42,478 nucleotides of DNA from Chrysophaeum taylorii (Eukaryota; Sar; Pelagophyceae; Pelagomonadales; Pelagomonadaceae). The notes below the pieces were generated by a model, which had not been told where the DNA came from, searched no databases, and saw nothing but the letters and a program-made list of their open reading frames with translations. Shown one piece after another: positions 1,438 through 40,273 of the stretch (within the stretch, counting starts at the first letter, position 1; each line of letters opens with the position of its first letter). Made by a program: the position numbers and the translations under genes. Location of the stretch: positions 1-42,478 of the forward strand of contig JAQMWT010000272.1 of the NCBI GenBank assembly GCA_029834535.1, read 5' to 3'.

Positions 1438-1466
1438 ATCGATAGTCCAACTCCCGGACTATCGAT
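1438..1466. other. Perfect 11-bp stem hairpin downstream of the G1a LTR
   Basis: ATCGATAGTCC, then a 7-base loop, then GGACTATCGAT. It lies just inside the 5' LTR of G1a, in the untranslated leader, where primer-binding and packaging structures usually sit. The function is not known. Confidence 0.5.
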
Positions 1467-2968: not shown

Positions 2969-3007
2969 CGTTTGTTTTGCGACCGCTTCTGCTGAAGAAC
3001 GACGCTT

Positions 3008-3208: not shown

Positions 3209-3243
3209 AGTCGCGGACGACTTCATCTCAAGTAGGGGGCTTC

Positions 3244-17255: not shown

Positions 17256-18387
<1,132 letters not shown>

Positions 18388-18721
18388 ATTTAGAAGTAAG
18401 GACAAGTGCAGGCCAGTAAGTTCATATGGTCCCAATATCTAACCCCCCATTCACTTGGTCATCTCAAACCCCACAAAGTTTTGTGCTGTGCTGACTTCGA
18501 CGGTCCCTCGCAAACACCCGCCTTCAAGTGCAGGCCAGTAAGTCCACTTGGAACCAAAGCTTAAACCCTTTTAGTTCTGCGCTCAATTCGACCCGGTCCC
18601 TCGCAAACCCTCGCCCTTCTAAGGGTGTTCCGCTTCTTCGTTCTCTGTTCAACACGCATGAGTCGGTGCTGCGGCCTGCTGAGGTCTGAACCCAACGACT
18701 CTGCAGCAAGAGAGAGGGCGG

Positions 18722-19590: not shown

Positions 19591-19962
19591 CCTTACCCTG
19601 ATCGCCGACCGCATGGTTGCGATGGAGGACGGTGCCTCATGAATCCTGAGCCTTGCGAGGGCATCCGCCCTCCCGGCGTAGGTTGGCACCTATTCGCCTC
19701 TCGGGCGGGCCGGTTGGCAGCCGGAACGTTCGCGGTGGGACGGGGTATGGCCGGGGGGCGCAGACGGAAGGTTATCGACGAGTTGGTTGTCAGTCACATC
19801 GCGGTCTCCTCGTCGCATGGCGACAAGCTTGATGATCACTCTCCGCCGACCCACCTTTCGGCGCCCCTCGTCTACAGGCCCGTGATTCCGGACTGGCTCC
19901 TGTCGGTCCGGCCTGGCTCCCATGCTCGGGAGAGGTCTGAAGTTAGTTAGTTAGTTAGTTAG
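19591..19962 (+). mobile_element. SINE-like retroposon, copy 2 (full length)
   Basis: Starts CCTTACCCTGATCGCC and ends GAGGTCTGAAG plus five TTAG units, about 370 bp. TAGCT flanks it at 19586-19590 and 19960-19964, a possible short target duplication that overlaps the tail. It shares over 90% of its bases by eye with the copies at 860-1218 and 25258-25906. It sits 165 bp from the LTR end of G1b. Confidence 0.7.
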
Positions 19963-20128: not shown

Positions 20129-20490
20129 TGTGGCGGTTCCTCAGTTCACCCGCCCCTCTTGGCCGGACTGGCGGTCACCACGCGGCCTTTCAAATAGCCC
20201 ACTGTCGCGGGTGGTTCCGCCACACGCCCAACTCAGCGCTTACGCTTGCGCCATATCAATGTCGGACAAGTGGTTCCGCCACACGCCCAACTCAGCGCTT
20301 ACGCTTGCGCCATATCAATGTCGAACAATCAAATTATGAGGGTATATAGGGAGGAATTAATATAGGTCCTCAGTACATAGGTTCCAGTGGAAAAGCAGGT
20401 GAATGTGTCAGGGTGACACCCCCAGATTTTCAAGGTAACAGGCAGGGTAACAGGCAGATAAGTGGGGGGGGGATAGACGTTACCGCCACA
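20129..20490 (-). repeat. 3' LTR of G1b with a 59-bp tandem duplication
   Basis: On the minus strand it begins TGTGGCGGTAACG, right after the polypurine-like tract AAGTAGGGGGCTCC, and ends CCGCCACA at 20129. It is related to the G1a LTR (shared TCCGGCCAAGAGGGGCGGGT). Positions 20211-20269 are repeated at 20270-20328 with one difference, a feature absent from the G1a LTRs. Confidence 0.75.
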
Positions 20491-20525
20491 GGAGCCCCCT
20501 ACTTGAGATGAAGTCGTCCTCGACT

Positions 20526-22812
20526 TCAAGGGTGACGAAGGTCGCGCTCACGAATGGCACGATAAGCTCGCTCAGCGACATCAGCAGGGACTTTGTTGCT
20601 GTGGAGGCTGAAGTTACTGACAAGGACATCGATCTGATCGGGTCGGAAGTCAGTTACACAAGGTTCACAGCCGTCCATATTCGTTCGGAGACGAGTGAAG
20701 CTACCTCCGTCAGGGTCTTTGTATTCTGGTCTTGAACGTCGCTCGCCCAGAGGCTTGGTAGGATCGAAGACGCGAGGATCATCGCGCGGACCCATGTCGG
20801 TGTAGTAGTGAAGCGCAACAGTATCATTGTCGTGATCATAATATTCGTAGACTTCGGCAACGAGATGCGCTTCTTCCAGGCATTAGATCGTCCTTTGACC
20901 TAAAGATCGCAAATTTGCCATGCTTGAAATGGGTGCGATCCGAAGGCAATGCAGAGGGTATGAAGAAGTGTCGATAGTCGGCACTTTCAAAGGCACAGAC
21001 TGCTGCACGGACACTACCATAGATTCGGCATCGTCGTCGTTGACGTCTTTAGTTTCGTAGACAACAGGGGAAATCTTCTTGGTGACAATGTATGGACCAA
21101 AATTGGCCGCAACTTGTGACGTGTCTTAGGTACGAAACGCAGGACATAATCGCCAGGAGAGAATTGGATGTCGATCTGATGTGCATCGTAGTTGATCTTC
21201 TGGCTTTCCTGGGCCTTTTGATGAGCTCGTGTAACGAGTTGACTGTAGAGTTCAAACTTATTCTTGAAGTCCGTCAATATCTGCTGACGCGATTGATGTA
21301 GACCGCGATGTTCGCTCAAGATATTGTAATCCGGCGGTAGCAGAGGCTGCTTGCCAGTTCGCATCATAACAGGTGAAATTTTCGTTCCAGGGATGTACAT
21401 ACGGCTGTACATGAAAGCAACTATTGGACGAAAATCGACCAATCAGGTTGACGCTGTTCATCAATCGCAGCCCGCAAGAAAGCTTTGATGAATCGGTTGA
21501 CACGCTCGGTATGATTGCTCTGCGATGTGATAAGGGATGGTAGTCCGGTAACGAACGTTAAATTGACGGACGAACGTCCGGAACAACTTATTCGCGAACT
21601 CATTTCCATTATCCGTAACTATGCACCGTGGGAGACATCCCTCGAGCAGAATCTTGTCAACAAACGCGTTCAAAATCGAGTAATCATGCTTGGTATTGAT
21701 CAAAGCCAATTTAAGAAAATGCGAAGCCGCATCGTACATCGCGAGGATATACGTGTGCAAGTCAGCATCTTGCAATGGTCCAATAAGATCCATGCCCAGG
21801 ACATGGCAATCTCCGATGTGATTCGGTTTGCAGAGTAAGCCATGGCGCTTAGGCACGGTGGATCGGACTTTCTGACTATAACGCACGCGCTGATGAACTC
21901 ACTGACCGAAGACTGGACGTTCGGCCACCAGTACCGTTCCAAGATCTGATTCGCTGTTGAATCTCGTCCTACATGGCCTCCAAACAATCCTCGATGATGC
22001 ATGGCGATCACACGCTCTTGCATCGATTGAGGTACCACAATAAGGCGTCGAGAGTCCGAATCATCAGCCTTGTACAAAACGTCGCTGTCGATCTCATATG
22101 GTACTGATGACTGCTCGTTTTTATCCTTCTGTTCCGAATCGAGGCTTTGGCGGATTCGCTTGCAAGTTTCATCCTCCGTCTGTTCTCGAGCTATCTCCTC
22201 GAGAGTGATTTCATCTTCAGCCTGATCGGCAAAAGGGAGATGTTCGACGGGGTCGACTGGTTCGGATTCGTACGCAAATTGAGGCGGCTGCACGTTTTGC
22301 GTACTAACTGCTGCCAGTGCTGCGGTAGGTTCGCTGTCCGTCGGTACAGGCATCGTCACTGACGAGAAAGTGAAACAAGCTGTGCCAGGAACATCAGTGG
22401 GAATCTCCTCGAAGATCAAATAAGGTTCATTTGTTGGTTCCCCGTCTTCATCCTGCTCGATCAACTTGTCGATGGGATTGCGCGACAAGCAATCGGGGAT
22501 TCTCATGCCAGGGGAGTTCCCTGGCTTGTATCCGAGCTCCCTGTCCAACGCAGCAAGCCGCATAGCCCATCGCGCTAGCTGTCCATATGAATAATTAGAA
22601 TTTCGAAGGAACGTCAAATTACGATGATCCGTCTCTAATTTCGTCTCATGCCCTTCGATGCAAAAGCGGGAATTCCAAAGAGCTGAGAGTACTGCGAGGA
22701 ATTCCAAACGTCGAGGATCATACTTCCTCATCGATTTGGGAACAGTTCGACTCCAGTACTCAATGACTCTCTCTTCCACTCGTTCTTTTCCGTCGTCGCC
22801 AACGACCGGCAC
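20526..22812 (-). pseudogene. G1b RNase H end, integrase and tail (frameshifted)
   Basis: The first frame (22812-21700) holds the RNase H part with KLETDHRNLTFLRN, the connection YKPGNSPGMRIPDCLSRNP and the integrase zinc finger (MHHRGLFGGHVGRD, then C..C). After a frame change the catalytic core shows Asp in VLGMDLIGPL and Asp in CIVTDNGNEF. The Glu region is reached in another frame, NHTERVNRFIKAF. Next come the C-terminal part with YIPGTKISPVMMRTGKQPLL and a tail ending RERDLRHP with TGA at 20526-20528. Four or so frame changes mean no integrase can be made. The protein cuts and joins element ends to host DNA in intact relatives. Confidence 0.85.
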
Positions 22813-23325
22813 TTACTGAAAAAATAGGCCCCGAGTCCATGCGCGGAAGCATCAGTCCGAATGTAGAAAGGGAGCGAGCACTCAGGATGGTATACTCCTT
22901 TAGAAGTGACAATAGCCTCAATGATGGCATCCCACGCCTCTTGACACTCTTTCGTCCACTCAAATTTCACGTCTGGCAACGTCAATTGTCTTAACGGCTC
23001 AGTGACTTTCGCGATGTTGCGCACATAGCGACGACAAAAACTCCCCATTCCCAAGAAGGAACGCACGTGCTTCTTGGGGTCAGCATCTGGCAAAGTACCT
23101 GGGATTGGCATGTGCCTGATAGCCTCTAAGGATCTCGGTGATGGAAGAAGCCCGTTTGGGGTATACAAATGACCCAAACACTCTATGACTTCCTTCATGA
23201 AATTAATCTTCTTTATCTAGGCGCTGTATCCTTTCAAAGCTAATTGGGGAATAACCTGAACAAGGCATTCCAGATGATTCCTTGTATCTGCACGTCCAGC
23301 AAGGATATCGTCAATATGCCACAAG
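22728..23325 (-). pseudogene. G1b reverse transcriptase end and RNase H start
   Basis: Begins with the catalytic box as HIDDILAGRADTRNHLE (normally YIDDIL), then a stop at about 23217. It continues ECLGHLYTPNGLLPSPRSLE, HVRSFLGMGSFCRRYVRNIA and the RNase H motif FYIRTDASAHGLGAYFF, with its first catalytic Asp in TDAS. The fingers and most of the palm that should precede the box are missing: the preceding frame stops just after PYRPSKEK, the normal start of the domain, so an internal deletion of roughly 100 codons removed the central polymerase. Confidence 0.85.
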
Positions 23326-23326
23326 A

Positions 23327-24900
23327 TCACGATATAGTCAAGCAATCGATCTTTTCCTTCGACGGCCGATATGGCGATATGTTGATGGGGTTCGGGTTCT
23401 CTTCTTTGAATCGCAGCTTGACCTCAGGTGAGGCGACAGGTCTAATCACATCATCGAAAAATGCCCACGAATGCGAGATGAGGTGTTTCATCATGAGCTT
23501 CTCGTCATCATCTAATGCAGGATGCTCTGTAATGCCCAACTCGGCTATCACCTCCTCGACCAGCGCGATGGTCGGAGGGATGACCGCCATGCTCTCTTGA
23601 TCAGCTAAATGAGGAGGCATCACTTGTAAAGGATTACCATGTTCGTCGTGAGGCGCGTCCGCCCACGGAACTTCGTACTTATTGAAATATGCTGGTTGCT
23701 CCTTCAAGGCGCCTTCTTCTTCTTCAGCAGTCGCGGAGGATTGGCTGCTCTGCATCACAGCAGTGGCGACGGTGCCCCCTGCAAAAGACTGAGCCGCCCC
23801 AGGCGATATAGGCGAAGGGGGTGGTGGGGTGGTGGTGGACACAAGGGATGGTGCAGGACTCGGAGCTGGACTGGTGTGCGAGTACAATTCATCCTGGTTG
23901 AACCACGACACGCTCCGGGTGTCGGGGTCAAGCATTGGAATGCGCGACTCGATAGCAAAAGGTGAAAACCGTAGATGGTGATCAGGATCTGCTATCGTCG
24001 CAGTCGTTATATTCCGTAGCTTACCAAGATTTCGGATCGAATGATCAAAAGAGTTGTGTACTGCCAGTGCAATCCGCGTCACAGTCACGGGTGGCACCGT
24101 ACCGAGCATCTTAATGGCTGCTGTCTGCGACACCTCACCCCATTGCCACGTACGTGGAACGGTCATGATTTCCTGGTGCATGTCCAACGAAAGTGGTCGC
24201 GTGTTGGAGAAATGAGGGCCCATCTGCAACTTATTGCGAGTTACTATAAAGGCTGGTCCAATGGCTGGTCGCGTAGAAGAGAAGCTATTAACCACGAGCA
24301 GCGGGTGACCACTCGTAAATCCTAACGCTGGCCCAAAACGATCCTGTAAGTTGGGTGGTACACGCGTCAATAGTGGCAGCGCCAAACGAACATTGCACGC
24401 AAGTAGGCGCGTGCGCGAACACAGCAATTCCGGGGTGATGCTATAAAAGTCGACCACGCGCGGAACATAAAAACTGTGATTCACAAAAGGTAAGACGGAT
24501 TGTTCCTGCTCTAACGTCCATCGTCCAATCACTAGATGTGCGTTACGAAAATGGCGTAGAACCCAGGAAGTGATTGCAGCACCCTTACGTGCGTCCATGT
24601 AGTGCAAATTTGCGGTATATGCATAAATGCAGGGGGGACTCGCATGAAACTAAGAGTGCTTCCAATAGTCCTGGTGCAGATATGACAAAACCAAGTCATA
24701 CGTGCGACCGTGAGATTTCCCAATGTCATGTAAGACATAAGGGATCTTAGGAAAATTGAGCTGGAAAACACCTCGAGCTTGTGGACAAGAGTCCAAAGCT
24801 AAAACAATGCGGAAAGAAGTCCCATGGACTTCATTGCATCGACGGATACCCAAAGACGATCCACCCGCGCCGGCGAAGTACACGACAACGAAAGTGTACG
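23327..24900 (-). pseudogene. G1b C5 cytosine DNA methyltransferase fused to the start of RT
   Basis: Intact relatives transfer a methyl group from S-adenosylmethionine to cytosine C5. Motifs occur in order in one frame: I, VYFAGAGGSSLGI (24877-24860); II/III, LALDSCPQARGVFQLNFP and LHDI; IV, ASPPCIYAY with catalytic Cys at 24629-24631; VI as WTLEQ (Glu at 24509-24511, EQ instead of ENV); VIII, CSRTRLLAC; IX, RPLSLDMHQEIMTVP; X, MLGTVPPVTVTRIAL, matching the usual GNAVPP. One TAG at 24650-24652, just before motif IV, breaks it. A Pro/Ser-rich and acidic linker follows, then RT begins with NPINISPYRPSKEK. No chromodomain, BAH or other DNMT accessory domain is seen. The full motif set makes the family call firm; the specificity is unknown. 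Confidence 0.9.
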
Positions 24901-25246
24901 TGATTGTATCCAGACCAAAGAGGCGTGCTTAGCGAGCAGCTCTTTAGTAGTCTCCTCCATTTCGGATGATGCTTTTTTTGTCTCTTCCTCTGGAGGAGGT
25001 TCAGGAGGAGGTCTTTCACTCAAAACCTCCTCTTCTACTTCAGTTTCGTCTTCGTCAGCCGAAGCGGTCACCAAACAAACGTCAGTCTCCTCTTCAGCGG
25101 CTTCCAGCTGAACGTTGATGCAGCCCTCATGCCGCACGATTTCCCCTTCAACCATGGGGACATCAGGGTCGATGCTGATGGGTCCTTCTCCAATATGCGC
25201 CACGGCCACGCGAACTTCGTTGGCCTCATGGGGCAATAGGACGAGA
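24900..25246 (-). other. Acidic linker between G1b protease and methyltransferase
   Basis: Minus-strand reading: IGEGPISIDPDVPMVEGEIV, then a strongly acidic, Pro-rich part with DEDETEVEEEVLSERPPPEP, then ETTKELLAKHASLVW. The frame changes near 24910 into the methyltransferase. The part nearest 25246 could be the end of the retropepsin-like region (VAVAHIGEG). The retroposon insertion at 25247-25917 separates it from the rest of the protease. Confidence 0.55.
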
Positions 25247-25257: not shown

Positions 25258-25906
25258 ATATCCTCCATCGCAACCATGCGGTCGGCGATCAGGGTAAGGG
25301 TATTCATTGCGGTGCGTCATGAATCCTGAGCCTTGGGTAGGGTCGGATAAGAAAACGAGACTAGCCCGCGCCGCAACGACGGGTCCTACAACGCGTGGGC
25401 TTTTTCCTTTTTTTGCGTGAGGGGACGAAAGGATGCCGACTTCACTATGGGGACTAGTTCCATCGCGACGATCTCGCGGCGTGGCGGCACATACTGCTTG
25501 AGTACAAATGAACATAGCTCAGCGATCCGTTGAGTATGTCTTAGTACAAACTGAAACATAGTTAACGGCTCGTACGAACTTTCTTATCCGACCCTACCTT
25601 GGGAGGGCATCCGCCCTCCCGGCGTAGGTTGGCACCTATTCGCCTCCCGGGCGGGCCGGTTGGCAGCCGGAACGTTCGCAGTGGGACGGGGTATGGCCGG
25701 GGGGCGCAGACGGAAGGTTATCGACGAGTTGGTTGTCAGTCACATCGCGGTCTCCTCGTCGCATGGCGACAAGCTTGATGATCACTCTCCGCCGACCCAC
25801 CTTTCGGCGCCCCTCGTCTACAAGCCCGTGATTCCGGACTGGCTCCTGTCGGTCCGGCCTGGCTCCCATGCTCGGGAGAGGTCTGAAGTTAGTTCGTTCG
25901 TTAGTT
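25258..25906 (+). mobile_element. SINE-like retroposon, copy 3, with 5' inversion and a nested TIR element
   Basis: AGGATCCTGGT flanks the insert exactly (25247-25257 and 25907-25917), an 11-bp target duplication inside the G1b gene. The first 40 bp (to about 25299) are the normal 5' end of the family in inverted orientation (TCCTCCATCGCAACC through GATCAGGGTAAGG). The rest runs forward to a (TTAG)n/(TTCG)n tail. Inversion of the 5' end with an intact 3' tail is the signature of twin priming during target-primed reverse transcription. The copy is further split by a 263-bp TIR element at 25336-25598. Confidence 0.85.
25336..25598. mobile_element. 263-bp MITE-like element with 19-bp TIRs
   Basis: Ends are GGTAGGGTCGGATAAGAAA and its exact complement. 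TTG precedes (25333-25335) and follows (25599-25601) the element, and the other retroposon copies have a single CCTTG at this place, so the duplication is 3 bp. Small size, no coding frame, G-rich TIR start and a 3-bp duplication resemble PIF/Harbinger-type MITEs, but the superfamily is inferred only. It is the youngest insertion in a three-level nest. Confidence 0.85.
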
Positions 25907-25917
25907 AGGATCCTGGT

Positions 25918-26768
25918 GTCACACGAAGATCAGGGTGTAGCGACCGATAATAAGGTCGGTGCGCCCAACATCTCATCAGCGGCACATCGCACTCGAGCTC
26001 CAGCATATAGGGATGGCTGGGCAGAAGATAGCAAGTGTTCGTCACAAACGCGAAGTGAGGGACGAAGGTCCTATCCTCTCGAGAGGGTCGACGTTGACTG
26101 TCCGTGTCCCAGCTGTGTCATTCGCGACGCGGCCATCATCCCCCAACAGAGGTTCCCTATGGTAGCGGCGATGATGGTTGGCCCTATATCGAATGGATCG
26201 AAGTAGCCTGCCGTAGCGCAAGGGAGGGCTAAAAGGCTTGCACTGCTTCGCGTTCCCATCTTGTACGGCGAGCTTGGCCGTTGGGAACATCGGCACCACT
26301 GTTGGAGTTGTATCGAACGCTTCATTGTAGAGGACGACCCCCTGATAATCTAGGGGCAGATCGGAGTTTTTTCTTTTGATGACTCCAATGGCAACCTCGG
26401 AGCGACGAAAGATAGCCGTCTCTGAGGTGTAGTCCACGATTGCACCCAACAGACGTAATTCTCGTGCTCCTATACGCAGTTGTCCATTCGTCTGCCCTAC
26501 GAAAAAACATCGGCAGCGTTGAAGTCCCTGGCGCCGAAGAGACGCGAAGGATGATCCATTCCTCGATGGCAGCTCCAGACCCACCTGATCCACTGAGAGT
26601 ACGCGTGGATGGTAACGGCTGACGATATATGATTTTGCCATCGCGACTAAGTTTAGTGCACAGCCTATGGTCGATGTACGGCGAGTCGGCCATGCCATCC
26701 AAGCCGAAAGCAATGACAGAATGCGTCGAACCATATAAAGAGGAAACAGCGACAGGGACGTACGTCAA
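25918..26768 (-). pseudogene. G1b protease (retropepsin-like) region, broken
   Basis: Two minus-strand frames overlap here. One reads SVIAFGLDGMADSPYIDHRL, where a retropepsin would have D-T/S-G in the same setting, so the active site looks lost or diverged. The other continues with GARELRLLGAIVDYTSETAI and LPLDYQGVVLYNEAFDTTPT, typical of the later part of a gypsy protease. Position between gag and pol supports this. Frameshifts near 26700 and 26330 inactivate it. It would cleave the polyprotein in intact copies. Confidence 0.55.
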
Positions 26769-26789
26769 GCAAGTTGACTTGGTCCCATC

Positions 26790-28030
26790 GTACGTAACCG
26801 ATCTTCACGCGGGTCCGAGCTCCCTACGGAGTTCATTGCTGTCTGAGGGCGGAAGTCCTCGAAGTCTGATGAGATGCTGGGGTACGCAGCAGAGCGATTG
26901 GCGAAGTTCTCTTCGGCGGGACCACATCGATAGCGAATACATTATCCCGCCTGCCAAGCAAAATTGGTTACTCGTGCTCCCACGTCTTAGCTCCCGCTCG
27001 AAAGGGGATGATCGGCGGAATTTTGTACACCTCAGTACCACATCACTCTTCCGCCTTCCAAGCCTCCTCCGTAATCACCAGAAAGGAAGGTGGTTCCATA
27101 GGCTCATCATGGAAGCGATATTCCTCGGACGGGTGACTATCATCATCACTTTCGTCCTCATCATTTCCGTCCGACAAGTTTCCTTCCATCAGTTCGGAAT
27201 TCTGGACAGTGCAACTTCCAGACCGCTTACTGTCATCCTCATCCTCACCCAGAACGTCGAGCCATCGAGCTGCGGCTCCATCGTTGCGCTGACTGGTGCT
27301 CGCCTTCTGCTGCTGCTGCTCCCTTGCCGCACTAGTCGTCTGGTGGGCTTGACGTATCTACGACATTGTGTTTAAAGCGTTCGCAATATCCTCCACTCTC
27401 ACGGAAGTCTGCGCGACATGCGGCGCGGCGGACTGCTGCTGGACCACCTGCGCACCTGTGATCACCTGTGGTTGACCTGCACCTGTGCCCTGTGCTGCTG
27501 TGTAGACCATCTGCGGTGGCTGTCCAAAGGGTCCCTGTACTCGTTGAGTCCCTGAAGCTTGACTCGCGACAATATCTTGCCTATACTGTTCCTGTCCTTC
27601 AGCGGTCGGTGGGAATCCAGCATCTCTCAACGTGCGGGTGGCGCGTGTTTTCCTCCGAGGGTTGCCCGGTCGAGGGCAGGTCCTGTTTTCGTGCCCAAAG
27701 TTACGGTCCCTTCCGCAGTAGTCCAAGCACGTCGTCACCGCTTGACGCGAATCAGGGTCAAGACCCGAGGGCAGCCAAGGTGGCGCTTCGGAGTTGGTGA
27801 CATGCCCGGCCAGCTGCTGCTGCCGCAGCCCTTCCTTCTTCCGTGCCACTCGTTCTTTCTGACTTTCCTGCTTATTCTTCTTCGATTCGCCCTCTTCATC
27901 AACCGACGGATTGGCCTCAAGATCTCATAGCCGTTCTCCACCGGCTTCAAATCATCAAAGTTGCAGGATTTGCTAAGTTCGATTTTGTCAACTTTGATTT
28001 TCAGGCTCTTATTTTCGAGCCCTAGCGAGG
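26790..28030 (-). pseudogene. G1b gag C-terminal part with variant zinc knuckle
   Basis: The clearest part (27849-27358) reads ARKKEGLRQQQLAGHVTNSE, then CLDYCGRDRNFGHENRTC, a Cys/His box spaced C-x3-C-x7-H-x4-C instead of the usual C-x2-C-x4-H-x4-C. A Gln/Pro/Ala-rich segment and VEDIANALNTMS follow. Beyond it (to about 26790) an acidic stretch with SDDDSHPSEEYRFHDEP bridges to the protease in another frame. The N-terminal half of gag is not recognisable, and the element's edge near 28030 is unclear. Gag packages the element RNA; this copy is broken. Confidence 0.55.
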
Positions 28031-29065: not shown

Positions 29066-29260
29066 TAGAGAACAGTATTCACAACTGTGCTACCCTTCAG
29101 CAGAGCGCGAGAACAGTGGTAGTCTGTCCTCGAATCTGTCTCTTAATCGAGGACAGCCGGTGTGAATAACACAGCGTTTTCTTAGATCAAAGGTGGCAAA
29201 GTTAAGCGAACTAACCCTATAACAGGGGGTACTAACCCTAGTTCGGATTTTCTATCTCCA
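29066..29260 (-). repeat. 3' LTR of C1
   Basis: 195 bp, on the minus strand from TGGAGATAGAAAATCCG to TACTGTTCTCTA. It matches 38249-38445 with roughly a dozen differences by eye. It follows the pol stop codon (TGA, 29266-29268) by only 5 bp, so there is almost no room for a separate polypurine tract outside the coding end. Confidence 0.85.
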
Positions 29261-29265
29261 CGCCC

Positions 29266-32200
29266 TCACAGATTGAACGCGGGGAGCGAAATCTGGATCA
29301 AACTAAGCGGGAAGCGTCTTACCATCGACAAGAATGTAGAGAGTGTTCTGGACAGAGTCGTACGGTGGAAGAGTAGCTGAAAGAGTAACTTGATGTGATG
29401 GTGGGGAGGATGAAGTGGAGTGAACGCCGTAGGCGTTTTTGAACTTGAGAAACAAGTTGCGTTGAAGGAGCTTCGAAAATGATCAGCGACCTGGTAGAGA
29501 GTAGGGCACCAGAGAGGTCTAATGATCGAATTAGCTTGGTAGTCGCGAATGCGAAATTCCCGTAAGTTGATATGACGAGAAGGAGCACTGACTTTAGGAT
29601 GATTAGCGACATGTAGTGCGCTAGCGTTGTCAATAAGTAAGAGGATAGCGTGAGCTTGATCACACGAAAACAGATAGGGGTGGGAGGAGAAAAGCTTGTA
29701 GAACCAGTGACATTCATCAGCGGCTGCGCTGGCGGCGATGAGTTCAGCTTCCATGGTGCTCTTGGCAGTGAGAGTCTGGCGTTTGCTAGACCAAAATACG
29801 AGGTTGCCAAAGACGAATATACATGCACCAGAATTGGATCGTAAGCGAGCGTCGGAACGATCAGCAAAGCTTGCATCAGCAAAACAGATAATAGGTGAAC
29901 GAAGATGATGCAGTTCAGGATAGTGAGCGATCAGATGCTGAATAAAGGGGGTAATAGACGGGCTGTCGGATGAATAGTCAAGGGAGTCATTCGGAGTGCC
30001 CTTTGAATAGCGAAGTAAAACATATAAGTGCATAAGGTGTGTTTGGTCGGGGTTGTGCATCCCTTTGCAGCATTTGTTGCACAAGGTGGTGATGTCCGGC
30101 CGACATGTGACAGACAAATAAATGCTGGTGCCACAATAGAAAGGGAAGTTTTGGCGTAATACATCTAAGGTAGTAGCCAAGTCCGAGAGAAGCTTAGTAT
30201 AAGGTTTTTGGACGAGGATGTCCGAATAGGGGACGTGTAGGCTATGTAGGTTGAGCTTATGCTCAGCAAGCATCTTGTTGATCTTCGCTGCTACATCCAT
30301 AGTGAGATGACCAGCGGGGACATTGTAGTTGACATCGATGCCAATAAAGGATCGGATGTTGTCATGCCATGTACCCTTGCCATATTCGGCCTCTAGAGCG
30401 GTGCGAAGAGACGCAATTTTGGCAGTGTTGGTACCAGTGATCAATAGGTCATCGACTGAAACGGATAGTAATACCCATTGGTTGATAGATCGATCCTAAT
30501 TGATATGAAGACAAGTATCGACTTGTGAGCGTTCGAACTCATGTTGTCGAAGAAATGAGTCGAGCTTAATATTCCACAACAAAGCTGACTGTTTGAGGCC
30601 ATAGAGAGCCTTGACGAGTCGGAGAGCGAGCTTCGACTCTGGATGGTTCTTCTGTATCTGCTGGATAAGATTTGGCGAGACACGTATTCCTCGAGGAAAG
30701 TCGATCCATACGGGGCGATCGAGTGCCGATTGGATGAATGCCTAAGGAATGTCCGCGTGCGCGACCGGGAGCTTGTGCTTCACGGCGATGGCGAGCAGTA
30801 GCCGGTTGGTAGCGAGCATTGCGGTTGGTGAGGATGTGGCATAAAAGTCAATGCCTACACGTGCCAAGAAACCTCGGGCGACTAGACGAGCTTTGTAGCG
30901 GTCTGGAGTGCCGTCAGCAAAATACTTGATCTTCAGCACGAGCTTCGTCGAGATAGACGAACGGTCTGGTGGTAAAGGCTCAAGCTTGAAGACACCATTG
31001 GAGCACAATCCTTCAATTTCCTTGCGAATCGAAGCGATATGCTTTAACTTGTCTTCTTCGCTGAGTCCTTTGAGTTCGACAATCTTTTCAGGCTCATGGA
31101 CGATATCTTCAGCGGTCACAAGTTTTAACACGACATGATCGATGTGCTGCAAATCATAGTCCATGACTTCTTGTATTATGTCTTGATTCGGATCACTTTG
31201 ACTTCGGAAGAGGTGTCCGAGTTCGCCAGAATCATGCATGAAGGCATGCCTGTGACGAGAAGCTAGATGGCAGTGTTGATGCGCCGAGATGTCCCATAAA
31301 AGAGAGGAACCCATACAACAGAATTCTTGATTCCATTGACGCGCATAGTACTCTGCCAGTGACATTTCGTCATGGCACATGTAGTTCTCGAGAACAGAAT
31401 TGTCGTTATCAAGGTGGTCAACCAACACAGACGAGTGGTATGGCTTCCTGGGGAAGTCAACGTACAAGAGTTCCGCGTCGGTTTCTCTCTGCAAATCCAG
31501 TGCGGTGCCGCCCATGATACCATAGTCTTGTGTGGTACTTGCTAGGAGACATCCTTTCGGGACATCATTAGGCGGCTTAGTTTCTCTTCGAATGTCGAGA
31601 GCAGAGGCGATGCTGGCGGCGTGGCCCTGGTGCAGAGCGCTGACACGGATGAGGAACATCAATGTGCTGGACATGTTGGCTGTGGCGTGAGCCGTGGATT
31701 GCTCCTGCTGGTATTTCCAGTTGCGACCATACTCTGAGGCGATACTGCGTCTGGTGACGAGTTTTCCATCGTCAACACGTTTCACGATGTAGAGTTGATC
31801 CTTAGGGATGCGGAATCCACGTTCGTCATTGAGATCTGCCTTGAGCTTATCGCTCTGGTTGCGATGCACGAGAACTGGAGTAAAAACTGAATCGTCGAGA
31901 ACAACCTCTTTTCGTTTGGGCATCGGAATGCTACCATCCGGCGGAGGTGGCCGGTTGAGGAACGAACAATCCTGTTCAGGTGTCGCGTCGCTGACGGGAC
32001 TTGAATCAGCAGCGGGAGTTGGATCCAGTTCTCTGTGTTTGTCGTCATCGCTAGGTTGGTCATCGTGCTCGTCTTCGTGAGTCTCGCCCTCATTTTTTGA
32101 TTCCTGTCTAATTTCCGGCATTTGCTGTTCGCTTGTAGCTCGTAGCGGGTCCTCTTGTCGTGCCTTTGGTGGGATCTGTGCAAGTGCTTTGATCCGTTCG

Positions 32201-34239
32201 ATCTCCTTGTTTCGGTTGACTGGCATGTCCGCGTCGACATGAAAGTCGTTTGAGGTGACGATTTTTCCATATCGCCCTTGACGTACAAGCAAGATAGAGC
32301 TGTGAACATCACGCATAAATCGGTCCGTTCCGGGGAGGTTCGGGCGATAGTTGTTACTATGAAAGTAAGAGGCAGAAACGCTGGAGGGTTCCAGCTTGTG
32401 ACTTTGAGGGTAGACAAAAGTGACAGGTTCGCCAAAGGGGGGGAGTTTCAAGAGCGGTACCGTGGGTGACATGATACGCCGGGGAACGGTGCATGGCATG
32501 TGTGTGCGCGAGGGCAGGCCATGAGAGCGCTGGTTGTCGGCTTGGATCTTATGCAGGAGAGCAAATGGGTGATAATACTCAGCGGCAATAGACTTTCCTT
32601 CGATGCGTACACTGCGAAGGTTGAGGAGACGAACCACGGTGCCTCGGGTGTTTTCTTTGATAATGTTTTCAGCAAGGTTCCGCTGGTGGAGGTGGCGACC
32701 AAGGATTTGGAATTGGAGACCAAGCTGCACCTTGAGAGGGTGGAAGGCTTCAGAGCGAACAGTCGAGAATGCGTCAGAGGATATAATCTTGACATGGACA
32801 TCGAATTCGACTTTGATCACGTTGACCACATAGAGGATGCCGGCCAGAACATCCTGTGCGTCTAATTTCCGTAGGAAATAAACCCATTTGTGTGCTGAGA
32901 TGATACACACGAAGTGCATGATATAGCGAAATCCGCCGTAGCACTTGTGGATGCTCGGGTATGACACATCCATGTGGAGGTGTTGGCCAGGAGCATAGGC
33001 CAGTTCAGCCTGTGACCAGGCAGTGTTTTTGTGACTGAAGCTTATGTGCGATTGGCAGCGCTTGCATTCACTGCAGTCTTGCAGATACCGATCATCACCT
33101 GGGCGGAGATTCGTTACATTAGCAGCGATCGTGCGGCGAATAATCTCTGGTTGCTGGTGGTGTATGCGGTGCCAGCGAGTGACCAAAAGCACTCTTTTGG
33201 CGTGCTGAGTGGTGCCGGGCTGGTGCAAGGGAAGCAGAGTGGCCGTCGAAGCGCCGGGGGGGCTGGGTCGCTTGTCGACTCGGATTTTGGTAACGGTTGC
33301 CTCGGCAAGCAGCGTCTCGAGGTTTGTCGATTTGCTTGGTCTGCGGGTCGTATCATGGTGAGCATCTGCAACGGCATTGAAGAGGGAGGTGAGGTTCAGG
33401 TCTTCCTCTGCTAAGAGACGGCTGGAGATGGCTGAGAAGAATTCTGCAACCTGGTGGATGTCTCCGGGGCTGAGGGTGCCATTGCGTATTGTAGCCCATT
33501 CGACGTGAAGGTTCACGTGGCGGTGCGATTCGTGGAATGCGAGGGCAGCGCTGTACTTTGCCTGCAACATGTGGTGCGGGACGGCGTTGGCCAGTGCCTT
33601 GAACGCGAAGTACGGCGGGTGCTGTTTGAATAGTCGGAGCAGTTCCGGGTCCGAGTGGTGTCCAAACTTTGCGATTTCGTTGAGGGTCGCGTAACGTATG
33701 TGGTCTGGAGAGATCAGCAGCAAGGCATTGGAGTAGCTCGTGTTGGTGGGGTACGAGCCAGTGACCGAGTAGCACTTGGTGCTCTTCTGAAGCGTGTCTC
33801 CGATGTGGCCGACATAGTTCGCGTAAGTGGGACGTGCTTTGGACATTAGGAGTCCCTTGGGGTCATCGAGGGCAATTCGCCCTTGTGAGTCGATCGCGGC
33901 AAAGCCAGGATGCGAACGATTCATATAGTGGACCCAAGTGGACGGGCGCGAACAGCTATGAGCGGCGGCCAAGGAGGTGGTGTAAGCGACGACCAGAAAG
34001 GCGGTGCCCTTGGGAACATCCAGGGAAAAGGAGTGCGTTGGGGAGAAGACTGCGGGTTGATGGGAACAGTCCAAAGTCTGAGGGGGCCTGGAATGTAGTG
34101 TGAGGGAGGCGCGCGAGAAGTATCCACATGCGACGGCAGTAGCGGCGGTGCCGGTGATGGCTTCATCCAAATGGTAAGCACATTGAGACTCTGAGACATG
34201 AAAACAGCGGATGGTGTTCCAAGCGGCGAGAGTGGGGTG
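29266..34239 (-). pseudogene. C1 integrase, reverse transcriptase and RNase H
   Basis: Integrase first: an HHCC finger (HRIHHQQPEIIRR, then CSECKRCQSH), core Asp in LHMDVSYP, Asp in KIISSDAFS and Glu in NLAENIIKENTRG. A Pro/acidic linker with GETHEDEHDDQPSDDDKHRE follows. Reverse transcriptase begins VFKLEPLPPDRSSISTKLVL and DRYKARLVARGFLARVGIDF, and has WIDFPRGI, ALYGLKQSALLWNIKLDSFL and the catalytic box as SVSVDDLLITG (Tyr before VDD replaced by Ser). RNase H shows CFADASFADRS, SNSGACIFVFGNLVFWSSKR and STMEAELIAASAAADECHW. Stops at 30742-30744 and 30496-30498 (both TAG) lie in the polymerase. The end codon is TGA. This is the part that copies and inserts the element. Confidence 0.92.
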
Positions 34240-35370
34240 TTACGACAAATGATTGTGCAGGAGCGTGAAAACCAGTAGGTGGGAAATGGACGCCATTGTG
34301 GCGTAGGGGGTGCCGTCGGCATCTAGACCGAGGTCCGTAAAGGGCTTGGTGAGACGTGCGAGCATTTGGCAGATGCGGGCATTCTCGGAAATCGAGAGTT
34401 GCGAGGCGTTGGCGGGCTTGTAGGAGTAGGAGGCCTTGTGCTGGTAGTAGTCCAATGTGGAACGGGGCACTGTACCTCGAAGGGCGGGTTTGGCGATCCA
34501 GAGATCGTCAGGGATGGTGTGACTGGGATCCAGGAGAGGGACCATGCTCGGAGGCGAGGTTAACCAAGTAGACGCGGTTTTCTCGAGGTTGTAGCCGGTG
34601 AGCGGATGCCGGGCATACACAGCGAGATAGCGTGTCTTGCTGATGACGTCACCAAAAGCAGAGGCATTGTAGACGCCGGAGTGGCGGAAGTAGCCTAAGC
34701 ACTGATAACCTTATGCGAGTTGAGTATACTCATGGTGAGTTCGGGGGTTGGGAGGTACGTTCTCGACAATGGCATAGGTCGGGAGCGTGAAACGAACGAA
34801 GCGGAGTTGTTCTTTGACGAAAAGGTCGGCGGTGACCGGAGTGGCATAACCGTCGTAGTCTTTCATTACACTCAGATGTTGGCAGGGCAATGTAAAAACT
34901 GCTAGGTCGAATGTAGGGAGTCGTATTTTGCCGGTCTGGAGTGCGGCATTGAGTTTTCTGAGGTCCGCATAGTGCTTGGCATGCGGACAGAGGTGTTGCG
35001 CACGGGTGCGCAGGATATCGTTGATTTCACAGGTGACTACGACAGTTAGGCGTTTGTCGAATCGTTTGCGAAAAGTGTCGAAACCTTCCTGGTGGAGTCC
35101 ACCTGCAATAATGGCTGTTTTGAGCAGAGGGGGTGGCGACTGCGCAGAGAGGTCTACTGAGCCATTGAAGGTATAGTGGACGACAGGAGATTGGAGGTTG
35201 AGCAGTTCGGTAAGATACATGGAATGATTTTGTAACTTCGCGAAGTCAAGCGTGTGTGATTTTGACCGTGTCTTTGCGACATGCTTTGTGATGTGTGCAA
35301 TCCCATCTTTGAGTGACATTCGTTTTCTTGTGTGAAAGCTGACCACAGTGGCGAATGTTTGCTTGGGATG
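34240..35370 (-). pseudogene. C1 C5 cytosine DNA methyltransferase domain
   Basis: Lies in frame with the integrase, directly after the protease. Motifs in order: I-like AIIAGGLHQEGFDTF (about 35115-35071); II, VVVTCEIND with Glu; III, HYADLRKL with Asp; IV, FTLPCQHLS with catalytic Cys at 34882-34884; VI, YAIVENVPP with Glu at 34762-34764; VIII-like, YNASAFGDVISKTRYLAVYA; IX-like, LSISENARICQ. Motif X is not evident. Stops: TAA at 34711-34713 between VI and VIII (the C2 copy has AAA there), and TAA at 34240-34242 (C2 has CAG). The PCQ and ENV versions set it apart from the G1b enzyme. About 370 residues is usual for a bare catalytic domain. In intact copies it could methylate element DNA; that role is inferred. 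Confidence 0.9.
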
Positions 35371-35397
35371 GGATGGGATGGGAGGGACAACAGGCCG

Positions 35398-36009
35398 TTA
35401 CGCTTGCGAGTGGCAAGTACGACCGGCGGTCTTTCCTATAAGTGTTGCATAATTGTGGGGGTCTGAGGTTGAGGAATTTAGGAGCTCAGAAAGGTAGGGC
35501 ACGTGGGGCAGTGGCGGGTCTGTTGCTTGTACATGCAGAGCTTTGAGCTGAGATGTTGCTATAACTTGAAGACCTTGTCTGAATTGCGGGACGACCATAA
35601 ATACGAGATATAAAGCGTAACCGGTTGTGTCTTTTGTATCCTTTGAAGAGAGACCTGCAGCCTGCAGATACACCGGTTTAACACCGATGAAGTGAATGGT
35701 AAGAGTCCCTCGGCCCATATGAATGGTGTGTTCGGGAATTCGGCGGATGGTCTCGGGAACAAAAATTTGAACTGTGCGCGTAAAGCAAAAAGATGCGCCA
35801 CCGTCAATCAATGAGGTTTCAGTGCCGGGGCCATTGCATCCGTGCAGTGAGCTAGTCTCCTTCGAGGTCTTGTCTGGAGTGTAAGCTGCACAAAGAAAAT
35901 CTGCAACTCGCGTGGAAATAGTTGATGAAGTCGGGAAATTCGTCATATGGGAGTTTGGTGCCTGATGAAGTAAGGTGTGGTTGGCGGCACAGGCGTCGTC
36001 GGCAACCAT
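35398..36009 (-). pseudogene. C1 aspartic protease
   Basis: From an ATG at 36009 (MVADDACAANHTLLHQAPNS) it runs to the active-site block TETSLIDGGASFCFTR, where DGGAS replaces the usual D-S/T-G-A. It continues TIRRIPEHTIHMGRGTL and GYALYLVFMVVPQF. Compared with C2, an extra G near 35425 shifts the frame, so the ORF ends early (SQA, TAA at 35398-35400) instead of continuing into the methyltransferase; C2 keeps that join open at this point. It would process the polyprotein. The Gly in place of Ser or Thr is shared by both copies, so it is a family trait, not decay. Confidence 0.85.
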
Positions 36010-36320
36010 CGGCGAAAAAGCCGACCCTGGTGGAGAGCACGCATGTAGTCACTGTGACGTTTAGCGTAGTCTTCGGCGGAGTCATCTTCATCATTGGTTT
36101 CGGGAATGGCGTCGTCGTAGAGGTCTAGCTGACCTTTGTCGTCATAGAAGCCGAGATGTCCTTTGTCGTCTTGTTCATCGGTTTCGGCTTCGCCCTCATC
36201 AGATTGATCGTCTTGGGGATCGGACGTTAACATCTGGAGGAATTCGGCGGCGTCATTTTCGGCTTCGGAAAGAAGTATCTCGTCGGAAATGGTGGTGATG
36301 AGGTTGATTAGCTTGTTCAT
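35943..36320 (-). CDS. C1 acidic spacer protein between gag and protease
   Basis: Starts MNKLINLITTISDEILLSEA and becomes strongly acidic (DPQDDQSDEGEAETDEQDD), then KGQLDLYDDAIPETNDEDDS and DYMRALHQGRLF. The same ORF exists in C2 with about 85% identity by eye, which supports translation as part of gag-pol. Its end overlaps the protease ORF start by 67 bases in C1, with the protease one base back in frame. No known domain is seen. It could be the end of gag or a separate linker. Confidence 0.6.
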   Translation of the reverse strand: MNKLINLITTISDEILLSEAENDAAEFLQMLTSDPQDDQSDEGEAETDEQDDKGHLGFYDDKGQLDLYDDAIPETNDEDDSAEDYAKRHSDYMRALHQGRLFRRWLPTTPVPPTTPYFIRHQTPI

Positions 36321-36329
36321 ATGCTCGGA

Positions 36330-38164
36330 GCTGGACGTATGTTGGCGACCGGCTTGGCTGAGATTCCGTGTGGTTTGGAGCTTGCGACGGACTTCACGAA
36401 GGGGACCTTGAAGCGTAGGTCTGGAGTAGATGGTTTGGGGGGGTGGGTTTGTGTGGGGAAGGTGACCTTGCGAAGATGCGGGTGCTCTCGTTTGTCAGGG
36501 GTGACAGGAGGAGCGCGGGGACGGTGCTTGTTCTTCGATGGGGTGACAGGGGTGGGCTTGGCTTAGGACTGTCATTGACGTCGAATAAGACGGGGAGCGA
36601 GGACTAGGAGGCTTTTTGCCTGGAGGGGGCTTTTTGACGTGCCGCGAAATATGCTTCTTGCGGTAGGCGTGTAGTTGGTGAATGAGATCATTGTCTTCCT
36701 CTTCATCAAGATTGGCCCCCGTGAGAAAAACGGCGACGGGGTCGGTGTCTTCAATGGGGTCCGGTGGGGTGTCGTCTTCAGAGGGAAGGTGTCATCATCG
36801 CATTCGGTGAGGTGGAGACCATGATGGCGGGAGCGAAAGCGGGGGTTGTCTTTGTCTTTTGTGGGCAGACGACCAACGTCCGTAACGAAGCGCAAAGGCT
36901 TGAGATTAAGAGTGGGATGAGGCTTGAGGTGAGCCCGAAAGTTGCGCTCGAACGTCGAGATGACGGTGATGCGAGCGATGAGCTTAGGAAGGTGGTGGAT
37001 GGCGTCCTTGTCTTCGTCGAGTAACAGCGAATCGTTGGGAGTGCGCAGACAGTTAGCAAGACGTGCAAAGCCCTTTATGTGTGTTGGGGCGCGGGAGTCA
37101 AGCAAGCTTGGGGGGTACTTGAATAGGAGAATTTGGTGAATTTCTTCGAAAATCTTGTGGTCAGGAAGTTGGAGAGAAGTGTCCGTGGTGATCTGGCGGA
37201 GTTGCTGCTGGACATGACGCATGTAGTCGATGTAGTGAGCTGGCTCATGGATCTCAGGGTTGAGCGGCGTGTCCAGAAAGGCATTGTAAACATAATGCGC
37301 ATGGTGGATGTGGTTCTGGCCCGTATGCTTATCGAGTGCGAGGCGAACTTGAAGCACGAATTCGAGTCCTATCGGGTAGGAGGATCCGAGTGCATCGATT
37401 TCGTCGTATGCTGGATGCGCGACAGAGTTGCTACCGGCATGTAGGAAACGACGAAAGAGGGGGTGTACGGTCTCGCGGAGATATAAGATGAAGTCGGCTT
37501 CTTTTCCTTGGAGATGTGGTTGAGTTATTGGATATAACTCGCCTTTTGTCATATCGGTTGGGTCCTTGTCTTGGTTCTTGAGTTGTGGAAGTTTTGGCTC
37601 GTAGACGTTGTCCAGGAAGTGTTTGCCGAACTTGTGGTAGACACCCTTGTAGTAGACGTAGCGGCCTTGGGGATCTTGCGTGTTCCCAGCGGTAGAGTGG
37701 TTGTCGGGGTCCTTGTCGTATTCGTCGATACAATGGCCTAGGAGAGCGTCAGCGAGATCGATAGATCCGCGCAGGACGGATTCCCACGTGTAGAAGCCCT
37801 GTTTGAAGTACTGTGTTATACCTGTTTCAGGCACCAGATGTTCGACGAACAATTGCATGACACGAAACGAGAGCATTTGGGGTGTGACTTGCGCCGAGTC
37901 CATGGACTTGAGAACGGCACTTGGTGGGTCACTAAAGGTGTTGATCTTAGACTTGGGATCTTGTTGAGCCGGAGTGGGAGGCGGAGCCGCAGCAGCGACG
38001 GCAGGTGGTGTCTGCATGGCATTGAGTTGTGCTTGAAGTGCTTGTAGCGCTTGAGCTTGTGCTTGTATCATTTGTTGTCGTGCTTGCATCTCCCTAGTAT
38101 ACTCTGCCTCTATGCGAGCTTCTTGGTCCTTCATCTCCTTTTGGGGTTCTTGGTTCGTCGGCAT
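36330..38164 (-). pseudogene. C1 gag
   Basis: Starts MPTNQEPQKEMKDQEARIEA. The first 55 residues are Gln-rich and heptad-like (coiled coil), then a Pro-rich hinge PAVAAAAPPPTPAQQDP. The main body holds SFRVMQLFVEHLVPETGITQ, YVYYKGVYHKFGKHFLDNVY and FVLQVRLALDKHTGQ, conserved in C2. It resembles no gag family I can name precisely and has no zinc knuckle. Relative to C2, one base is missing near 36775 (ACCTTCCC against ACCTCTCCC), so the frame that should continue with SEDDTPPDPIEDTD is lost and the ORF ends in the wrong frame at 36572. It would form the virus-like particle. Confidence 0.85.
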
Positions 38165-38233
38165 TTTGCTTGGGCTCAGGAACGTCAGTTAACTTGACTT
38201 GTCTGGAAATCCTGGGACTCTGCTGATACCGGG

Positions 38234-38248
38234 ACTGGGCCCATAACC
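38234..38248 (-). promoter_or_regulatory. C1 primer-binding site, half-tRNA type
   Basis: Immediately after the 5' LTR end (CTCTA) the minus strand reads GGTTATGGGCCCAGT. Its complement, ACTGGGCCCATAACC, is the anticodon stem-loop (CAT anticodon) of eukaryotic initiator tRNA-Met. This is the arrangement of Drosophila copia and yeast Ty5, which prime from a cut initiator tRNA rather than its 3' CCA end. The position next to the LTR fixes the LTR boundary. Confidence 0.9.
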
Positions 38249-38445
38249 TAGAGAACAGTAATCACAACTGTGTTACCCTCCAGCAGAGCGTGAGAACAGT
38301 GGTAGTCTGTCCTCGAATCTGTCTCTTGATCGGGGACAGCCGGTGTGAATAACACAGCGTTTTCTTGAATCAAAGGTGGCAAAGTTAAGTGAACTAACCC
38401 TGTAACAGGGGGTACTAACCCTATTTCGGATTTTCTATCTCTACA
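38249..38445 (-). repeat. 5' LTR of C1
   Basis: 197 bp, on the minus strand from TGTAGAGATAGAAAATCCG to TACTGTTCTCTA. It is a direct repeat of 29066-29260 relative to C1. On its outer side the first codons of C2 gag begin only two bases away. Confidence 0.85.
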
Positions 38446-40200: not shown

Positions 40201-40273
40201 AGTTCGTCGCAAGCTCCAAACCATACGAAATCTCAGCCAAGCCGGTCGCCAACATACGTCTAGCTCCGAGCAT

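What the first reader, a model, noticed from the sequence alone, without database searches (positions are those of the whole stretch)
23327..24900. A Ty3/gypsy element carries a full C5 DNA methyltransferase between protease and reverse transcriptase
Seen: motifs I (FAGAGG), II/III, IV (SPPC), VI (WTLEQ), VIII (SRTR), IX and X (GTVPP) in order and in one frame, joined in frame to the start of a gypsy RT (NPINISPYRPSKEK). Known: these are the defining C5-methyltransferase motifs. From memory, captures of DNMTs by LTR retrotransposons have been reported in a dinoflagellate (copia type) and a charophyte alga (gypsy type), so the idea has precedent, but this family should be compared directly. Inferred: the element may methylate its own or host DNA, either to hide extrachromosomal cDNA, to keep itself quiet between bursts, or to alter host silencing.
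Basis: partly seen in the sequence, partly recalled or inferred. Interest (0 to 1): 0.95.

Follow-up and report, generated by a model that had tools for sequence, protein, structure and literature searches.

The report
Alga retrotransposons carrying DNA methyltransferases
In an unidentified alga, a multi-copy family of jumping genes carries its own enzyme domain of the kind that adds methyl tags to DNA, and a second jumping-gene family in the same stretch carries a different one, which suggests that such elements repeatedly gain from tagging DNA themselves.

Summary
On the minus strand, a Ty3/gypsy element carries a C5 cytosine-methyltransferase (DNMT) domain at 24032-24904, upstream of RT. 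The window copy is dead: an in-frame TAG between motifs III and IV, about 133 RT codons deleted, the first part of gag missing. It belongs to a family: 102 matches in the own genome (96 of 1178 candidates scored). Of 32 copies read (mostly the best-scoring), 17 hold the 293-aa domain open. One copy has 331-bp LTRs 99.4% identical. Catalytic residues survive in 30-32 of these 32. Between subfamilies DNMT dN/dS is 0.06-0.08, about as low as RT, below the linker (0.22-0.26): the domain is selected. Protein searches found no relative. Unexpectedly, a Ty1/copia-type family in the same window carries a different DNMT, also after a protease-like segment; 55 of 57 listed Pfam DNMT matches in the genome lie in it, the other two look like DNMT2 and DNMT5. 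Ty3-DNMT capture has a published precedent (Klebsormidium, PMC5890265), so this is a new variant of a known kind. Methylation itself is untested; element bodies show no clear CpG-decay footprint.

The parts
24032..24904 (-). C5 DNA methyltransferase domain (motifs I-X in order) of the Ty3/gypsy copy, with an in-frame TAG at 24650-24652
   Evidence: family-level Pfam/NCBIfam/PHROG matches
23333..24031 (-). linker between DNMT and RT, and the first residues of RT (NPINISPYRPSKEK 23351-23392)
22746..23336 (-). C-terminal part of RT and start of RNase H; about 133 RT codons upstream are deleted
   Evidence: tblastn with sister polyproteins; PF17919
20532..22824 (-). RNase H and integrase (H2C2, rve), in more than one frame
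   Evidence: PF17917, PF17921, PF00665
24907..25227 (-). polyprotein segment just before the DNMT
26171..26920 (-). protease-like segment (inferred from position and residues; no Pfam match)
26911..27921 (-). later part of the gag-like region; the first about 480 residues of the sister polyprotein are not found here
20270..20520 (-). remnant of the 3' LTR, by alignment to the LTR regions of L034 and L035 (inner end estimated)
29066..38441 (-). Ty1/copia-type element with its own, different DNMT; repeats 29066-29258 and 38249-38441, 94% identical (exact LTR ends not determined)
34240..35112 (-). copia-type DNMT domain, broken by in-frame stops in this copy (IIAGGLH 35092-35112, TLPCQ 34879-34893, VENV 34756-34767, SKTR 34630-34641, ARICQMLA 34357-34380)
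   Evidence: PF00145 21.4 bits, E 2e-4, just under the cut-off of 22, for window:34714-35346; open copy P0007 30 bits

Best explanation
Shown: this is an old copy of a multi-copy Ty3/gypsy LTR retrotransposon family whose gag-pol reading frame includes a C5 cytosine-methyltransferase domain between a protease-like segment and RT. The capture predates the split of the sampled subfamilies and the domain has been kept by selection. Inferred: the DNMT is made as part of Pol, is packaged in the virus-like particle next to RT, and methylates the element's own double-stranded cDNA before or soon after integration. The mark makes the DNA look like host DNA, or seeds methylation that the host's DNMT5-like enzyme can copy at each division, so that the element survives as a tolerated, quiet insertion.
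For: Identity: Pfam, NCBIfam and PHROG matches, motif order and residues. Family: 102 matches, 96 of 1178 candidates scored; 90 RT/RNase H matches, 86 of 1340 scored; 38 of 66 RT matches that reach the 5' end have a call-7 DNMT match within 1.5 kb. One frame: P0002 gag-like region, DNMT, RT and RNase H in 2128 aa; L034 DNMT, RT, RNase H and integrase in 2114 aa. Mobility: LTRs of 331 bp, 99.4% and 96.1% identical in two copies, TG...CA ends, 4-bp duplications, PBS-like and PPT-like tracts read by eye. Selection: dN/dS 0.06-0.08 between subfamilies at dS above 1. Catalytic residues kept in 30-32 of 32 copies read. A second family has a DNMT at the corresponding place. Host has SRA (1), MBD (5) and DNMT5-like matches. 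L035 LTR CpG observed/expected is 0.61, but over 331 bp only. Published: DIRS-borne DNMTs methylate CG de novo in yeast (PMC5890265 passage).
Against: No activity data. CpG observed/expected is 1.03-1.10 in five gypsy element or ORF stretches: lower than four host loci (1.26-1.46) but not depleted, and like other parts of the window (0.99-1.08 in three stretches); transitions at CG are hardly in excess (0.0162 against 0.0143 at CHH and 0.0232 at T). In yeast the Klebsormidium gypsy DNMT showed no activity, which its authors call inconclusive. DNMT-less derivatives exist, e.g. C335. The motif I aspartate is replaced and about 20 residues stand between the aspartate at 70 and PPC. PDB by sequence: no hit; AlphaFold model useless, pLDDT 30; hhalign to a 7-sequence DNMT panel only 22.5% probability, E 9e-4. 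The 32 copies are biased to the best-scoring ones.
Confidence: 0.45

Rival explanations
1. The domain is an active methyltransferase but its substrate is RNA (the element's genomic RNA, tRNA primer or host RNA), protecting or sorting the RNA in the particle.
For: No clear CpG mutational footprint in the element bodies. RNA methylation was proposed for the Symbiodinium LINE-borne DNMTs (PMC5890265 passage). DNMT2, of the same superfamily, methylates tRNA (PMC9998398 passage).
Against: The best-scoring profiles are named DNA methyltransferases, though profiles do not tell DNA from RNA substrates. The DNMT2 hallmark CFT tripeptide (recalled, from no call) is not in the aligned copies A1.
Confidence: 0.2
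2. The enzyme acts in trans on the host: it alters host methylation or silencing so that the family is less well repressed, or it represses the family itself between bursts.
For: Many copies and long retention under selection. Host has likely 5mC readers (SRA 1 match, MBD 5 matches) and a DNMT5-like gene.
Against: Trans effects are shared with all other copies, so selection on each copy's own DNMT is easier to explain by a cis benefit.
Confidence: 0.2
3. The domain has lost catalysis and is kept as a nucleic-acid-binding or structural part of Pol.
For: The motif I aspartate is changed (VVVYFAGAGG) and the spacing before PPC is unusual.
Against: PPC, motif VI Glu and motif VIII RxR are kept in 30-32 of 32 copies although 10 of the 32 already have stop codons in the domain; dN/dS is low in I-VIII and in the stretch between VIII and IX.
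Confidence: 0.13
4. Chance resemblance, or a one-off insertion of a methyltransferase gene into one element copy.
For: Window pieces alone score below Pfam's cut-off.
Against: Sister copies pass it, 102 matches in the genome, same place in Pol in separate insertions, purifying selection.
Confidence: 0.01

Closest known systems
KnitGypsy-Dnmt3 of Klebsormidium nitens (de Mendoza et al. 2018, PMC5890265; section 9 and passages seen)
   Same: C5-MTase domain inside the Pol reading frame of a Ty3/gypsy element; many intronless copies; key residues kept; purifying selection (Ka/Ks below 0.2 there; 0.06-0.08 between subfamilies and 0.19 within the main group here).
   Different: That DNMT groups with DNMT3 and the legend calls its repeats DIRS-like; here the DNMT has no assigned class and no relative was found, and the LTRs are ordinary direct repeats. 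No direct sequence comparison was possible.
SymbioDIRS-Dnmt3 and SymbioLINE-Dnmt of Symbiodinium (same paper)
   Same: Retrotransposon-borne C5-MTases; more than one retrotransposon class carries DNMTs in one genome, as here.
   Different: DIRS and LINE classes, not LTR Ty3 and Ty1; the paper states that Symbiodinium copia elements lack a DNMT.
Methylase-bearing Ty3/gypsy and DIRS retrotransposons listed in an opinion paper (PMC6338049, passages seen)
   Same: It states that such elements, with adenine (DAM) or cytosine (DCM) methylases, occur in many eukaryotes, stramenopiles among them.
   Different: The passages do not say which clade and lineage has which methylase and show no sequence; no copia element is named in them.
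AlkB-bearing Ty3/gypsy elements of Phalaenopsis orchids (PMC9289625, passages seen)
   Same: A Ty3/gypsy lineage that captured an enzyme acting on methylation marks.
   Different: RNA m6A demethylase in an additional ORF, not a DNA methyltransferase within Pol.
ParB/N4C- or N6A-methyltransferase gene of the Sola1 transposon of Ectocarpus (PMC12477816, one passage seen)
   Same: Algal mobile element that carries a DNA methyltransferase.

Membership tests
C5 cytosine-specific DNA methyltransferase (PF00145) | Profile match above the curated cut-off | tested here: met
   Open sister copies 33.0, 30.8 and 28.2 bits against 22 (P0001, P0002, L034). L035 at 17.5 bits (its frame starts after motif I) and the two window pieces at 18.5 and 12.6 bits fall below.
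C5 cytosine-specific DNA methyltransferase (PF00145) | Ordered motifs I, IV (PC), VI (Glu), VIII (RxR), IX, X (labels recalled) | tested here: met
   The motif I Asp is replaced and the spacing before motif IV is long.
C5 cytosine-specific DNA methyltransferase (PF00145) | AdoMet-dependent MTase fold | tested here: inconclusive
C5 cytosine-specific DNA methyltransferase (PF00145) | Methyl transfer to cytosine | not testable with these tools
   Needs an assay.
Ty3/gypsy LTR retrotransposon | RT, RNase H, integrase in this order in Pol | tested here: met
   RVT_1, RT_RNaseH, H2C2, rve in order in L034 and L035 (rve below its cut-off in both).
Ty3/gypsy LTR retrotransposon | Direct LTRs with TG...CA ends, target duplication, PBS and PPT | tested here: met
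   L035 and L040: 331-bp LTRs, 4-bp duplications, TGGTCTCAGAAACGGGAATCG after the 5' LTR, purine tract before the 3' LTR (read by eye). Not met in the window copy, which keeps only a 3' LTR remnant.
Retropepsin-containing Pol | Aspartic protease domain upstream of the DNMT | tested here: inconclusive
   No Pfam protease hit at E up to 0.5; position and residues suggest one.
DNMT3 / KnitGypsy-Dnmt3 | Groups with DNMT3 in a tree | not tested
   No eukaryotic DNMT1/3 set was gathered; similarity too low for a trustworthy tree.
Ty1/copia element with DNMT (second family) | RVT_2-type RT, terminal repeats, DNMT profile match in one frame | tested here: met
   P0007: RVT_2 E 1.6e-12 and PF00145 30 bits, E 4.6e-7, in one 1768-aa frame; repeats of 193 bp, 94% identical in the window. 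No Pfam integrase match; integrase residues by eye only.

The most novel reading that the evidence does not exclude
The alga's own C5-MTases that I could detect are only a DNMT2-like and a DNMT5-like gene, DNMT5 being described as a maintenance enzyme. Two LTR retrotransposon families, with DNMTs not detectably alike, supply all the other C5-MTases detected. They may be the de novo arm of the host's DNA methylation: retrotransposons write new marks on their own copies and the host enzyme perpetuates them.
Probability: 0.15. Interest if true: 0.95.

Novelty: new variant of a known kind. Interest (0 to 1): 0.75.

Why it matters
It adds what looks like an independent case of LTR retrotransposons keeping a DNA methyltransferase under selection about as strict as that on RT, and it shows a Ty3 and a Ty1/copia-type family in one genome each with a different DNMT, both just after a protease-like segment. 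Repeated, parallel capture argues for a real benefit of carrying such an enzyme. If the host has only a maintenance DNMT of its own, the old question of where de novo methylation comes from in DNMT5 lineages becomes directly testable with methylation-aware long reads.

Tried and rejected
Frameshift in the window DNMT: rejected, it is one in-frame stop. Chance or one-off insertion: rejected. Relatives among about 5.8 billion proteins, at this search's word-based sensitivity and E up to 0.01: none for the gypsy DNMT (6041 candidates), none for DNMT plus linker among full-length polyproteins (8000 scored), none for the copia DNMT (6555 candidates). Relatives in IMG/VR: none. PDB by sequence: none for gypsy, marginal for copia (9 sequences at E up to 1, best 0.017). 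Gypsy and copia DNMTs are not detectably alike (hhalign probability 0.5%). Structure: uninformative; no fold search made. CpG decay: no clear footprint. Host species: not named; none of the 8 papers listed for '697 contigs' holds that phrase and the rRNA search did not complete. On re-checking I dropped the word 'clean' for the C335 deletion: upstream and downstream parts lie in different frames there.

Full report
WHAT IS IN THE WINDOW. The window is a whole 42,478-base contig (C272) of a 70.8-Mb genome in 697 contigs. On the minus strand a Ty3/gypsy copy runs from about 27,921 (gag-like) to a 3' LTR remnant near 20,270. That frame is broken once in the DNMT, by a TAG at 24650-24652 between motifs III and IV. 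Right after the start of RT about 133 RT codons are missing, the first about 480 residues of the sister polyprotein are not found, and a roughly 300-bp repeat that occurs elsewhere in the window sits at 25597-25908. This copy is therefore dead.

IS IT A METHYLTRANSFERASE. The window pieces alone are below Pfam's cut-off. Open sister copies are above it: PF00145 33.0 bits, E 5.6e-8 in P0001; 30.8 bits in P0002; 28.2 bits in L034; L035, whose frame starts after motif I, stays below at 17.5. PHROG DNA methyltransferase E 1.7e-11 and 8.9e-12; NCBIfam dcm E 4.8e-5 and 6.8e-5, far below its curated cut-off. Profile-profile comparison with seven DNMTs (six phage, one host DNMT2-like) aligned the stretch from motif I to the PPC of motif IV at E 9e-4 but only 22.5% probability. 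No PDB sequence matched and the AlphaFold model was useless. The domain is thus a very divergent but recognisable C5-MTase; the motif labels are recalled knowledge.

FAMILY. A search of the own genome with the 440-aa window piece gave 102 matches, 66-100% identical, some of them pieces of one copy; 96 of 1178 candidates were scored, so counts are lower bounds. Some contigs are probably haplotypes of one another (C6/C268; C25/C521), which inflates counts. I read 32 copies: the 30 best-scoring loci plus L033 and L034, picked for long frames, so they are biased to well-kept copies. Of these, 17 hold the whole 293-aa domain in one frame without a stop (duplicates removed) and 22 have no stop codon in it. 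P0002 runs 2128 aa from a gag-like region through DNMT and RT into RNase H; L034 runs 2114 aa through DNMT, RT, RNase H and integrase; no Pfam gag model reached its cut-off (P0001 E 0.085). L035 has 331-bp LTRs 99.4% identical, L040 96.1%, with 4-bp duplications (GCCG; CTAG), a PBS-like and a purine tract. These are recently mobile LTR elements.

DO COPIES LACK THE DOMAIN. Of 90 RT/RNase H matches (86 of 1340 candidates scored), 66 reach the 5' end of the query; 38 of these have a call-7 DNMT match within 1.5 kb and 28 do not. I read 1.6 kb upstream of 5 of the 28: C111 and C619 do carry a DNMT (C619 about 69% identical and broken); C335 has lost it by a deletion that leaves the upstream and downstream parts in different frames, though its RT frame is open; C6 shows only the last 63 residues before RT; C681 (RT 66% identical) keeps the motif IX-X end and the linker at 39%. 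So the domain is typical of the family and old in it, but DNMT-less derivatives exist; 23 of the 28 were not read.

SELECTION. Nei-Gojobori dN/dS. L003 against L033: DNMT 0.062 (bootstrap 0.036-0.093), linker 0.233 (0.150-0.334), RT 0.057 (0.030-0.102; 202 of 1000 replicates saturated). L003 against the window copy: 0.083, 0.215, 0.061 (RT on 138 codons). L033 against window: 0.083, 0.255, 0.157. L003 against L002, a nearer pair: 0.114, 0.193, 0.266. Within the main group of 28, where dead copies dilute the signal, the ratio of sums is 0.19 for DNMT and 0.34 for linker and RT (378 pairs). Synonymous distances above 1 are near saturation. Key residues among the 32 copies: motif I F and two G, motif II D, VI E, VIII both R and X first P in 32; D70 31; IV first P 31, second P 30, C 31; X G 31, second P 31. 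Distances in DNMT and RT correlate over all pairs (r 0.86) but not within the main group (r 0.06), where recombination or noise may act.

SECOND FAMILY. At 29066-38441 (minus) lies a Ty1/copia-type element with terminal repeats of 193 bp, 94% identical, and another DNMT (TLPCQ, VENV, SKTR; PF00145 21.4 bits, just under the cut-off). An open copy, P0007, has PF00145 at 30 bits and RVT_2 in one 1768-aa frame and 49 matches in the genome (27 of 2092 candidates scored). Its DNMT gives 151 matches, some of them pieces of one copy (150 of 423 candidates scored). Of the 57 PF00145 matches in the genome (123 of 474 candidates scored), 55 lie in this family (23). In 12 copies TLPCQ is kept in 12 and VENV in 11; dN/dS is 0.13-0.16 in 66 pairs, against 0.14 for the stretch before and 0.32 (45 pairs) for the stretch after. 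The two DNMTs do not detectably match each other, and the copia one matches the phage panel much better (95.7%), so two captures are likelier than one. Both DNMTs follow a protease-like segment.

HOST. 84 light-harvesting matches. Of two proteins compared with PDB, L055 matches fucoxanthin-type antenna chains best (9ygv 'FCP6 and FCP10', 229 bits); for L054 the top four rows are multi-domain LHCI chains of 9vfj, followed by FCP- and VCP-type chains. I infer an alga, probably with chlorophyll a/c-type antennae; the species is unknown. The two PF00145 matches outside the copia family are a DNMT2-like gene (C634, SPPCQPHTRQ; hallmark recalled) and a single-copy gene (C621) whose 2086-aa open frame also holds an SNF2 match 1.7 kb downstream, the DNMT5 layout. 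One SRA and five MBD matches were found. The PF00145 scan did not list the gypsy DNMTs, so a divergent or intron-split host DNMT1, DNMT3 or DNMT6 could have been missed too.

MECHANISM. I favour methylation of the element's own cDNA by a Pol-borne enzyme, with the host DNMT5-like enzyme copying the mark. Shown: anatomy, copy number, recent mobility, selection. Inferred: packaging, substrate, benefit, link to DNMT5. CpG observed/expected is 1.03-1.10 in five gypsy stretches, 1.01-1.10 in three copia stretches, 0.99-1.08 in three other window stretches and 1.26-1.46 in four host loci; one LTR (L035, 331 bp) has 0.61. Transition rates are 0.0162 at CG, 0.0128 at CHG, 0.0143 at CHH, 0.0165 at A and 0.0232 at T. 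So there is no clear footprint of CG methylation in the element bodies: the context may not be CG, marks may be short-lived, or the substrate may be RNA.

PRECEDENT AND NOVELTY. PMC5890265 (section 9 and passages seen) reports DNMT3 in the Pol frame of a Klebsormidium gypsy element, and DNMTs in Symbiodinium LINE and DIRS elements, with copia lacking them. PMC6338049 (passages) states that retrotransposons of the Ty3/gypsy and DIRS clades with adenine or cytosine methylases occur widely, stramenopiles included, without saying which has which. PMC12344493 (passages) speaks of copia and DIRS elements with DNMT3, citing PMC5890265; given that paper's own words this may be a slip. PMC10538959 (passages) describes DNMT5 as a maintenance enzyme and Cryptococcus as lacking de novo activity. 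In the rows listed (20 of 310; 6 of 6; none; 2 of 2; 15 of 4,760; 10 of 20; 7 of 7) I saw no title or abstract start that reports another LTR element with a C5-MTase; the library holds open-licence papers only. Hence: new variant of a known kind.

Noticed in passing
window 29066-38441 (-): Ty1/copia-type element with its own, different C5-MTase; 151 DNMT matches of this family in the genome (150 of 423 candidates scored).
   Followed up: partly
window 38537-42478 (+): Second, decayed copy of the same copia family, head to head with the first, its DNMT region broken by several stops.
   Followed up: partly
window 723-3576 (+): Internally deleted gypsy derivative: LTR pieces, part of gag and 3' LTR of the DNMT-bearing family, with pol (DNMT included) missing.
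   Followed up: partly
window 861-1161, 19651-19962, 25597-25908; L035 6327-6616: A roughly 300-bp repeat, 94-98% identical, sitting in an LTR, in the gypsy copy and in the gag region of another gypsy copy.
   Followed up: no
window 13621-15703 (+): Remains of a distant Ty3 element (37-51% identical to RNase H/integrase parts of the DNMT family); whether it ever had a DNMT was not tested.
   Followed up: no
window 18649-19080 (-): Reading frame that resembles the end of a Pif1-type helicase, as in Helitrons (recalled resemblance, not tested).
   Followed up: no
window 17557-18383: Long AGAC-type tandem repeat array.
   Followed up: no
G000:C621:16962-20237: DNMT5-like host gene: DNMT and SNF2 matches in one 2086-aa open frame, single copy.
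   Followed up: partly
G000:C6 and C268; C25 and C521: Matches at nearly the same positions on two contigs: probably both haplotypes are assembled, so copy counts are inflated.
   Followed up: no
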